Shown here: positions 12,319 through 14,347 of the stretch, piece by piece
Numbering within the stretch: the stretch's first letter is position 1
Layout of the letters: each line of letters opens with the position of its first letter
DNA from: Bacteroidota bacterium
GTDB lineage: Bacteria; Bacteroidota; Ignavibacteria; Ignavibacteriales; Ignavibacteriaceae
Length of the DNA stretch: 45,428 nucleotides
Reading direction: 5' to 3'
NCBI GenBank assembly: GCA_021815365.1
Contig: JAKAGZ010000020.1
Span: forward strand, 1-45,428
The notes under the pieces: model-generated
What the model was told of the DNA's origin: nothing
Databases searched by the model: none
What the model saw: the letters and a program-made list of their open reading frames with translations, nothing else
Position numbers and translations under genes: made by a program

Positions 12319-12347
12319 TTGACATAAATACAATAATTTGCTATGTT
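12319..12347 (+). promoter_or_regulatory. Sigma70-type promoter of the ilv-leu-glt operon
   Basis: Consensus TTGACA (12319-12324) and TATGTT (12342-12347) are separated by exactly 17 bases. Initiation is expected near 12353-12355, about 7 bases before the ATG of the Ile/Leu-rich leader ORF at 12361. It is the best promoter match upstream of ilvD. A TTGACC nearer the gene (12580) has no convincing -10 partner. Confidence 0.65.
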
Positions 12348-12360
12348 GTGCACCATCTTA

Positions 12361-12519
12361 ATGAACAACGCGCATAAAAATATTACCACAAGTATTAACG
12401 CTGCCTCACCCCATGGCATCGGGCGGGTTAGTTCATCTATTTCCATTAATAATTTACTATCAGATATTACCCTTCTAGGGATTATTATTAGCATACTATC
12501 GCTAATTATTCTTTGCTAA
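12361..12519 (+). CDS. Putative branched-chain amino-acid leader peptide
   Basis: An ATG-TAA frame of 52 codons. By my reading 12 codons are Ile, 7 Leu and 1 Val. In the last 25 residues 15 are Ile or Leu, including the phrases INNLL, TLLG, GIIIS and SLIILC. Four of seven Leu codons are CTA. The ATG lies about 7 bases after the predicted transcription start and has no Shine-Dalgarno site, so translation would be nearly leaderless. The end of the ORF overlaps the hairpin at 12476-12537 upstream of ilvD. A leader peptide that senses charged Ile/Leu tRNA explains the composition best. The antisense frame here is a shadow. Confidence 0.62.
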   Translation: MNNAHKNITTSINAASPHGIGRVSSSISINNLLSDITLLGIIISILSLIILC

Positions 12520-12593
12520 TAATTAAGTCAATCCCTAAAAGCAAACCAAATAGAACCAAAAATTAAAGCTGCATAGGGGTTGACCTAAACCCT
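12476..12593 (+). promoter_or_regulatory. Candidate ilv attenuator with four pairing segments
   Basis: Segment 1 TAGGGATT (12476-12483, inside the leader ORF) pairs perfectly with segment 2 AATCCCTA (12530-12537). The stem continues as ATTATTAGC (12484-12492) with GCTAATAAT (12515-12523) across a 6-base bulge. Segment 2 can instead pair with segment 3 TAGGGGTT (12574-12581), eight pairs with one G-U. Segment 3 (its GGGTT) can pair with segment 4 AACCC (12588-12592). Ribosome position on the Ile/Leu codons would choose between forms. The 3:4 hairpin lacks a clear T-run, so the output may be Rho-dependent or translational. The structure is read by eye. Confidence 0.5.
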
Positions 12594-12637
12594 GAAGTCT
12601 GTCTGATGATTTGTATTTAAATCAATCAGAGGTAGCA

Positions 12638-14347
12638 GTGAGATCAGATTTAATCAAAAAAGGGTTTGATAAGGCACCGCACAGAAGCTTGTTAAAAGCT
12701 ACCGGTGTTATAAAATCGGACGAGGACTTTAAAAAACCTTTTATCGGTATTTGCAATTCTTACATTGATCTTATCCCCGGTCACGTTCATCTGCAGGAGT
12801 TCGGGAAAGTAGTTAAAGAAGCCGTGCGCAAGGCAGGCGGAGTTCCGTTTGAATTCAACACAATCGGCGTGGACGACGGAATTGCTATGGGTCATCTCGG
12901 AATGCGTTATTCACTTCCCAGCAGAGAACTGATTGCCGATTCAGTTGAAACGGTTGCAGAAGCTCACCGGCTGGATGGACTTGTTTGTATTCCCAACTGC
13001 GACAAAATAGTACCCGGGATGTTAATGGGTGCAGCAAGAATAAACATTCCGGCAATATTCATTTCAGGCGGGCCGATGAAAGCCGGTCGAACTTCGAAAG
13101 GAGAAAAGAGCGACCTGATAAGTGTTTTCGAAGGAGTTGGCAAATATCAAAATGGAGAGATGTCTTCCGAAGAATTGCTGGAGCTTGAAAACGTAAGCTG
13201 CCCGACCTGCGGCTCGTGTTCGGGAATGTTTACAGCAAATTCAATGAACTGTTTGATGGAAGCGCTTGGAATAGCATTGCCGGGCAACGGTTCGATACTT
13301 GCGGTTGATCCGAAAAGAAAAGAACTTGCACAGCAGGCAGCACAGCAGATTTTATACCTCGTAGAACATAACATTAAGCCGTCCGATATTTTTACAAAAC
13401 AATCTTTCAGAAATGCTTTCGCTCTTGATATGGCAATGGGAGGAAGCACAAATACAATTTTACATTCACTTGCAATTGCTCTTGAAGCCGGGTTGGATTT
13501 TAATCTTGAAGAGCTGAACGAAATTTCTTCAAAGGTTCCTTACATCTGTAAAGTAAGTCCGGCTTCAAAAACAGTTCACATGGAAGATGTTGACAGAGCC
13601 GGAGGAATCCAGGCAATATTAAATGAGCTTTCAAAGCTTGAAGGTGTTATTGATCCTGCTTGCTTAACAGTTACCGGAAAAACCATCAGCGAAAATTTTA
13701 AAGATGTAAAAGTAAAAGACCGCAGTGTAATCCGTTCCTGCGAAGATCCTTATTCGAAAACCGGCGGACTGGTTGTTCTTTTCGGTAACCTTGCACCGGA
13801 AGGAGGAGTAGTTAAAACCGGCGCCGTTGATCCTGATATGATGGTGCATAAAGGACCTGCAAGAATTTATGAATCTCAGGAAAGTGCTCTTGCCGGAATT
13901 TTAAATCGCGAAGTTCAACCCGGTGATGTAGTTGTAATTCGTTATGAAGGTCCGGCAGGCGGACCGGGAATGCCGGAAATGTTGAGTCCAACCAGCGCAA
14001 TAATGGGAATGGGGCTTGGAAATAAAGTTGCTCTCATAACAGATGGAAGATTTTCCGGCGGAACCAGAGGAGCCTGCATCGGCCACATCTCTCCCGAAGC
14101 CGCAGCAAGAGGTCCGATCGCTGCAATAAATGAAGGCGATATAATTTCAATAGATATTCCAAACAGATCAATAAATCTTGAATTATCACAGGAAGAAATA
14201 AATCAAAGACTTGAAAACCTGCCGGAGTTTGAGCCAAAGATAAAGAGAGGTTATCTATCGAGATATTCCAAAATGGTTTCGTCTGCAAGCAAAGGTGCTG
14301 TGTTAAGATTATCCGAACTTGAAAAAAATACAAAGGAGCCTGTATGA
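12638..14347 (+). CDS. ilvD: Dihydroxy-acid dehydratase
   Basis: The 569-residue protein matches IlvD over its length. The Fe-S region [19 protein letters not shown], the GGSTNT phosphate site, DRSVIRSC and the late GRFSGGTRG motif are all present. It dehydrates 2,3-dihydroxy-isovalerate and -methylvalerate to the 2-oxo acids. I take GTG 12638 as start: AGAGGT lies four bases upstream and the resulting [19 protein letters not shown] is the usual N-terminus. A frame extension back to TTG 12611 adds nine residues without support. It is the first structural gene after the leader region and overlaps ilvB by four bases (ATGA). Confidence 0.95.

What the first reader, a model, noticed from the sequence alone, without database searches (positions are those of the whole stretch)
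12319..12637. Branched-chain amino-acid attenuator: Ile/Leu-rich leader ORF plus alternative RNA pairings before ilvD
A promoter (TTGACA-N17-TATGTT) is followed by a 52-codon ORF whose last 25 residues include 15 Ile or Leu, with Ile-Ile-Ile and four CTA Leu codons. Its 3' part overlaps an RNA segment able to pair with 12530-12537, which can also pair with 12574-12581, which can pair with 12588-12592. This is the 1:2, 2:3, 3:4 logic of enterobacterial ilv and leu attenuators. I do not recall a described ilv attenuator in this phylum. The weak point is the absence of a clear T-run after the 3:4 hairpin.
Basis: partly seen in the sequence, partly recalled or inferred. Interest (0 to 1): 0.85.

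Follow-up and report, generated by a model that had tools for sequence, protein, structure and literature searches.

The report
Ribosome-sensing leader before isoleucine-leucine-valine operon
In front of the genes that make isoleucine, leucine and valine, this bacterium has a short RNA with a tiny reading frame full of codons for those same amino acids and two mutually exclusive RNA foldings, so ribosome stalling can report shortage; the switch is conserved across several bacterial phyla but lacks the usual transcription stop signal.

Summary
The 52-codon ORF (12361-12519) is the only one of 953 stop-ended 25-mers in the window with at least 15 Ile/Leu, and no shuffle of 4,000 reached that. 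Orthologous Ile/Leu/Val-rich leaders precede ilvD in nearly all Ignavibacteria examined and in Calditrichota, Neomarinimicrobiota, KSB1 and Chlorobi relatives. Pairings 1:2 and 2:3 are conserved with compensatory changes, and distant members replace the whole stem sequence yet keep it. Rare Leu codon CTA is about 7-fold enriched in the leader tails. Among 59 relatives the element is in 29 of 30 genomes with an ilvB orthologue and in none of the other 29. Where ilvD is lost it sits before ilvB. So the sensor half is a ribosome-mediated attenuator. The output step, probably Rho-assisted or paused termination but possibly translational, is undecided. No Rfam family matches.

The parts
12319..12347 (+). 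Promoter TTGACA-N17-TATGTT of the leader transcript
   Evidence: conserved TTGACA-N17-TATATT-like site 12-24 nt before the leader ATG in most of 45 relatives
12361..12519 (+). Leader ORF, 52 codons, MNNAHKNITTSINAASPHGIGRVSSSISINNLLSDITLLGIIISILSLIILC
   Evidence: conserved position, amino-acid make-up of the tail, pN/pS about 0.4 over 12 pairs
12442..12516 (+). Regulatory codon block: last 25 codons, 15 Ile/Leu, four CTA Leu codons
   Evidence: family tails 33% Ile, 26% Leu, 6% Val; CTA 37% of Leu codons versus 5% in ilvD; F+A+M+W under 2%
12476..12483 (+). RNA segment 1 (UAGGGAUU, inside the ORF)
   Evidence: 1:2 helix 89.5% cells paired, 4 of 8 pairs with changes on both sides
12527..12537 (+). 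RNA segment 2 (GUCAAUCCCUA), just after the leader stop codon
   Evidence: pairs with 1 or 3
12538..12573 (+). G-poor unstructured spacer that becomes the loop of 2:3
   Evidence: family mean 36 nt, A 0.51 C 0.16 G 0.06 T 0.28
12574..12584 (+). RNA segment 3 (UAGGGGUUGAC)
   Evidence: 2:3 helix 88% cells paired, 7 of 11 pairs with changes on both sides, slid controls 23-54%
12588..12592 (+). RNA segment 4 (AACCC), partner of 12576-12580; small hairpin without U-run
12602..12632 (+). Hairpin UCUGAUGAUUU/AAAUCAAUCAGA touching the ilvD SD (CAGAGG 12627-12632); present in this clade only, not general
12638..14347 (+). ilvD (dihydroxy-acid dehydratase), GTG start; first gene of an ilvD-ilvB-ilvN-ilvC-leuB-leuA-type operon

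Best explanation
This is a ribosome-mediated attenuator of the ilv-leu operon. A ribosome follows RNA polymerase through the leader ORF. When charged Ile, Leu or Val tRNA is short it stalls in the codon block and covers segment 1, so segment 2 pairs with segment 3 (11 bp across a G-poor loop of about 36 nt) and the operon is expressed. When supply is good the ribosome reaches the stop codon, a few nucleotides before segment 2, so that segment 2 is masked or pairs with segment 1. Segment 3 is then free to form the small 3:4 hairpin and expression is cut. Shown by comparison: the leader peptide, its codon bias, the promoter, the 1:2 and 2:3 pairings and their exclusivity by overlap. Inferred: stalling, direction of the response, and the output. 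My best guess for the output is premature transcription termination without a standard U-tract, Rho-assisted or at a hairpin-plus-pause (about 0.6); translation initiation control of the first gene, possibly with Rho polarity, about 0.3; a weak intrinsic terminator about 0.1.
For: Same-position Ile/Leu/Val-rich ORF in nearly all relatives across several phyla. Covariation of 1:2 and 2:3 far above slid and shuffled controls. Unrelated stem sequences still pair in L075, L087, L089, L150-L153, with 2:3 beaten by 0-1 of 300 shuffles each. CTA codon enrichment 37% versus 5%. Tail is Ile/Leu but almost free of Phe, Ala, Met, Trp. Leader in 29/30 genomes with an ilvB orthologue and 0/29 without. Leader kept before ilvB where ilvD is gone (G003, G027, G030) or absent (G017, G140, G288, G411), which favours operon-level control. 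Conserved promoter. Chlorobi members have a hairpin followed directly by a U-run, i.e. transcriptional attenuation in a sister lineage.
Against: No standard terminator in the window or in the Ignavibacteria/Calditrichota members. 1:2 in some members (L144, L147, L149) is no better than shuffles. No expression data. The sequences are related, so cell counts overstate independent events.
Confidence: 0.83

Rival explanations
1. Translational attenuator: the switch opens or closes the ribosome-binding site of the first gene, and Rho polarity follows, as in the toiL-topAI leader of E. coli.
For: In L075, L087 and L089 segment 3 can pair with the ilvD SD/start region and RBS opening costs 4-8 kcal/mol more when segment 2 is masked. 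In the window +2.4 kcal/mol. ilvD start sites are somewhat more structured than other starts in the same loci (median 6.6 versus 5.2 kcal/mol, p = 0.001). toiL precedent (PMC12121999).
Against: Over 65 members the change in RBS opening has median 0.0, 18 up and 13 down. Local SD sequestration is not above shuffles (mean z 0.24). The element is found before ilvB and gltB as well as ilvD.
Confidence: 0.27
2. Classical attenuator exactly, with 3:4 an intrinsic terminator.
For: 3:4 hairpin region folds better than shuffles in 43/44. Some members have T6-T8 runs 10-20 nt downstream (L015, L016, L053, L056). Weak excess of low-scoring terminators (21% versus 6% at score above -40).
Against: No member above score 0, none detectable in the window. 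The same loci hold strong U-tract terminators elsewhere (13 versus 0 in shuffles). The U-rich stretch lies about 6-10 nt beyond the hairpin.
Confidence: 0.1
3. The three short repeats (TAGGGATT, AATCCCTA, TAGGGGTTGAC) are DNA operator half-sites for a regulator protein and the pairings are a by-product.
For: In close relatives the core GGTCAATCCC / GGGATTGACC is well conserved in sequence.
Against: Distant members have unrelated but complementary sequences. G-U pairs are frequent (20 of 44 at one pair), which fits RNA pairing rather than a symmetric operator. The repeats are fixed relative to the ORF stop codon.
Confidence: 0.03
4. The ORF encodes a small membrane protein whose hydrophobic tail explains the Ile/Leu content.
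For: The tail is hydrophobic; purifying selection pN/pS about 0.4.
Against: Phe+Ala+Met+Trp under 2% of the tail, unlike transmembrane helices. Rare CTA codon enriched 7-fold. Always before BCAA genes except one gltB copy. RNA pairings overlap the ORF.
Confidence: 0.03

Closest known systems
ilvD attenuator of Staphylococcus aureus (PMC5794164)
   Same: Ile/Leu-rich leader peptide upstream of ilvD as first gene of an ilv-leu operon; alternative RNA foldings; leader codons and folding conserved among relatives
   Different: S. aureus has a terminator stem-loop with poly-U 52 nt after the peptide stop; here there is none, and the switch is a long-range 2:3 stem with a G-poor loop
Enterobacterial ilvGMEDA, ilvBN and leu attenuators (established knowledge)
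   Same: BCAA codon run, stop codon between segments 1 and 2, 1:2 versus 2:3 logic, rare Leu codons
   Different: No U-tract terminator; segments 2 and 3 far apart; no match to the Rfam leader families
ilvB-II motif of Corynebacterium and ilvB-OMG motif (PMC10272879)
   Same: Upstream ORF rich in BCAA codons before ilvB
   Different: ilvB-II has a P2 stem with U-run; no Rfam family reached its threshold on the window or on the relatives' leaders searched (the only hit was an unrelated SAM riboswitch)
Candidate attenuators reported for Bacteroidetes/Chlorobi by Vitreschak et al. 2004 (recalled from memory; paper not held)
   Same: As I recall it claims amino-acid attenuators in a few members of this wider group
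   Different: Could not be read; to my knowledge Ignavibacteria genomes were not available then
toiL-topAI uORF with Rho (PMC12121999)
   Same: Leader ORF stalling, RNA refolding, no intrinsic terminator
   Different: Senses antibiotics, acts on translation first

Membership tests
Amino-acid leader-peptide attenuator (trp/his/ilv/leu type) | Short translated ORF enriched in codons of the regulated amino acids, before the biosynthetic operon | tested here: met
   (translation itself not shown)
Amino-acid leader-peptide attenuator (trp/his/ilv/leu type) | Mutually exclusive pairings, one overlapping the ORF (1:2, 2:3) | tested here: met
Amino-acid leader-peptide attenuator (trp/his/ilv/leu type) | 3:4 hairpin followed by a U-tract (intrinsic terminator) | tested here: not met
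   a weak hairpin exists
Amino-acid leader-peptide attenuator (trp/his/ilv/leu type) | Expression rises on starvation for the cognate amino acids through ribosome stalling | not testable with these tools
   needs expression data
Translational attenuator (ermC/toiL type) | SD/start of the regulated gene sequestered in the OFF fold and freed by stalling | tested here: inconclusive
   clear in L075, L087, L089, modest in the window, absent overall
T-box or known riboswitch upstream of ilv genes | Match to a described RNA family | tested here: not met
   no Rfam match at gathering in the window or on the leaders of relatives
Rho-dependent leader | rut-like C-over-G, unstructured RNA downstream of the leader ORF | tested here: inconclusive
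   spacer C 0.155, G 0.059, but G-poverty also follows from a need to stay unpaired

The most novel reading that the evidence does not exclude
An ancient ribosome-sensing BCAA attenuator shared by Ignavibacteria, Calditrichota, KSB1 and Neomarinimicrobiota that works without an intrinsic terminator: the 2:3 stem locks a G-poor loading region for Rho into a loop when the ribosome stalls, and the module is reused in front of different first genes (ilvD, ilvB, gltB).
Probability: 0.35. Interest if true: 0.7.

Novelty: new variant of a known kind. Interest (0 to 1): 0.52.

Why it matters
It extends leader-peptide control of branched-chain amino acid synthesis to a deep group of mostly uncultured phyla, with unusually clear comparative evidence for the switch. 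Because the sensor half is conserved but the terminator is missing in genomes that use strong terminators elsewhere, it gives a clean case for asking how attenuation works without an intrinsic terminator.

Tried and rejected
Rfam at gathering and relaxed thresholds: nothing relevant. Terminator scoring of all members: none above 0; rejected that the lineage lacks terminators. SD-sequestration as the general output: not above shuffles. A sigma-70 promoter read from TTGACC in segment 3 plus TATATCT: spacing about 13, rejected by eye. Vitreschak 2004 not held.

Full report
Setting. The window belongs to a genome of the Ignavibacteria; the closest named records are Melioribacteraceae/Ignavibacteriales. 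The leader lies before ilvD, which is followed by ilvB, ilvN, ilvC, a leuB-like gene and a leuA-like gene (names other than ilvD are from the translations read by eye). It is the only copy in its own genome.

Observation. The ORF tail is exceptional: 15 Ile/Leu in the last 25 residues, one of 953 stop-ended 25-mers in the window and never in 4,000 shuffles. The leader RNA folds with z = -4.0.

Conservation of the ORF. Upstream of ilvD in relatives down to about 66-70% IlvD identity there is almost always a short ORF of the same kind, ending 96-146 nt before ilvD in most, with the tail pattern LLGIIIILSLLGI..L.G. This covers Ignavibacteriales, Calditrichota, KSB1 and, with other tail sequences, Neomarinimicrobiota and Chlorobi. 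Two Ignavibacteria loci, L054 and L060, lack it. The tails are 33% Ile, 26% Leu, 6% Val, with Phe, Ala, Met and Trp together under 2%. The rare Leu codon CTA makes up 37% of Leu codons in the tails against 5% in ilvD, and 31% after leaving out codons before GGN that overlap segment 1. pN/pS over 12 pairs is about 0.4. A TTGACA-N17-TATATT-like promoter sits 12-24 nt before the leader ATG in most members.

The switch. On an alignment of 44 relatives the 2:3 helix has 88% of cells paired and 7 of 11 pairs with changes on both sides; slid controls reach 23-54%. The 1:2 helix has 89.5% and 4 of 8. Both use the same bases of segment 2, so they exclude each other. Members outside this alignment have unrelated segment sequences that still pair strongly, for example AGGACAGUUAAUCACAAUCC with GGAUUCGUGAUUAACUGUCC in L075 and CCAGAAGCGAAUCC with GGAAUCGCUUCUGG in L089; 2:3 is beaten by 0-1 of 300 shuffles in L075, L087, L089 and L150-L153. 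The 1:2 pairing is weaker there and is not above shuffles in L144, L147 and L149.

Gene association. A covariance model finds the element at E below 1e-6 in 29 of 59 relatives. All 29 are among the 30 genomes that hold an ilvB orthologue; the exception, G036, has only a partial ilvB, apparently at a contig end; none of the 29 other genomes has it. In G003, G027 and G030 the ilvD orthologue is gone apart from a start-like remnant and the leader stands before ilvB; in G017 two copies stand before acetolactate synthase genes; in G140, G288 and G411 it stands before ilvB. In G040 a second copy stands before a glutamate synthase gene. The element therefore behaves as an operon-level module rather than as part of ilvD.

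The output step. Yet the RNA around segment 3 and its 3' flank folds better than shuffles in 43 of 44 members, mean z -1.8, so a small hairpin of about 8 bp with drifting register is general. A U-rich stretch follows only after about 6-10 nt. With the d'Aubenton-Carafa score no member exceeds 0 and the window has no candidate. The method finds strong terminators elsewhere in the same loci, 13 against 0 in shuffles, some of them in SAM-riboswitch leaders beside the ilv operon. Control of ilvD translation is likely in L075, L087 and L089, where segment 3 pairs with the SD or start codon, but over all members neither the change in RBS accessibility nor local SD sequestration exceeds chance. The loop between 2 and 3 is G-poor (0.06) with C 0.16, compatible with Rho loading but also with a need to stay unpaired. 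I therefore commit to ribosome-mediated attenuation, most likely by Rho-assisted or paused termination, with the output marked as inference.

Known relatives. The nearest described system by gene is the S. aureus ilvD attenuator (PMC5794164), which has a U-tract terminator. Leader peptides with BCAA codons and terminators are described for Corynebacterium, and the ilvB-OMG motif of several phyla has BCAA-rich uORFs (PMC10272879); no Rfam family matches our element. An actinobacterial survey already noted leader peptides without obvious terminators and suggested Rho (PMC1262725). A 2010 survey knew leader-peptide systems only from Proteobacteria and Actinobacteria and added Firmicutes (PMC2965389). 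From memory, Vitreschak et al. 2004 claimed some attenuators in Bacteroidetes/Chlorobi; the paper is not held, so priority for the wider group is not excluded.

Verdict. Observation confirmed, interpretation supported for sensor and switch, not for the terminator. A new variant of a known kind.

Noticed in passing
Own genome G000:C80:56440-56565 (L165) and relatives L154, L166, L168-L172, L174, L175; also L035 and L036: Upstream of a metY-like gene (O-acetylhomoserine thiol-lyase, named by eye) a Met/Cys-rich short ORF (e.g. NMAMCLCCMMCSSTRMVSA, KCMCCFCMMCHKVYGRTL) is followed by a canonical terminator (AAGCCCTTCC..GAAGGGCTTTTTT), then a SAM-I riboswitch with its own terminator: apparently a methionine/cysteine leader-peptide attenuator in tandem with a SAM riboswitch, in about a dozen genomes. 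No paper held has all five search terms. In the own genome the first terminator has lost its U-run. This deserves its own study.
   Followed up: partly
L149 (G040:C37:20815-21008): A second copy of the element lies before a glutamate synthase large-subunit gene; its peptide (..PTILKPGITKPTAAESITILKG) is no longer Ile/Leu-rich although 2:3 is intact.
   Followed up: partly
L144, L145, L146 between leader and ilvB: The ilvD orthologue is gone but an SD and start codon context like its own (VRS/MRS) remain, opening short ORFs of about 45-67 codons; L144 and L146 share an inverted repeat TGTTGTA..TACAACA.
   Followed up: no
L073, L074, L076, L078 (Chlorobi): Leaders with a different tail sequence (..VSVPLVHVRIIVA) before ilvD, with hairpins followed directly by U-runs, i.e. 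more classical attenuators.
   Followed up: partly
L067:463-572 (minus): SAM riboswitch upstream of the ilv region in a Marinimicrobia contig.
   Followed up: no
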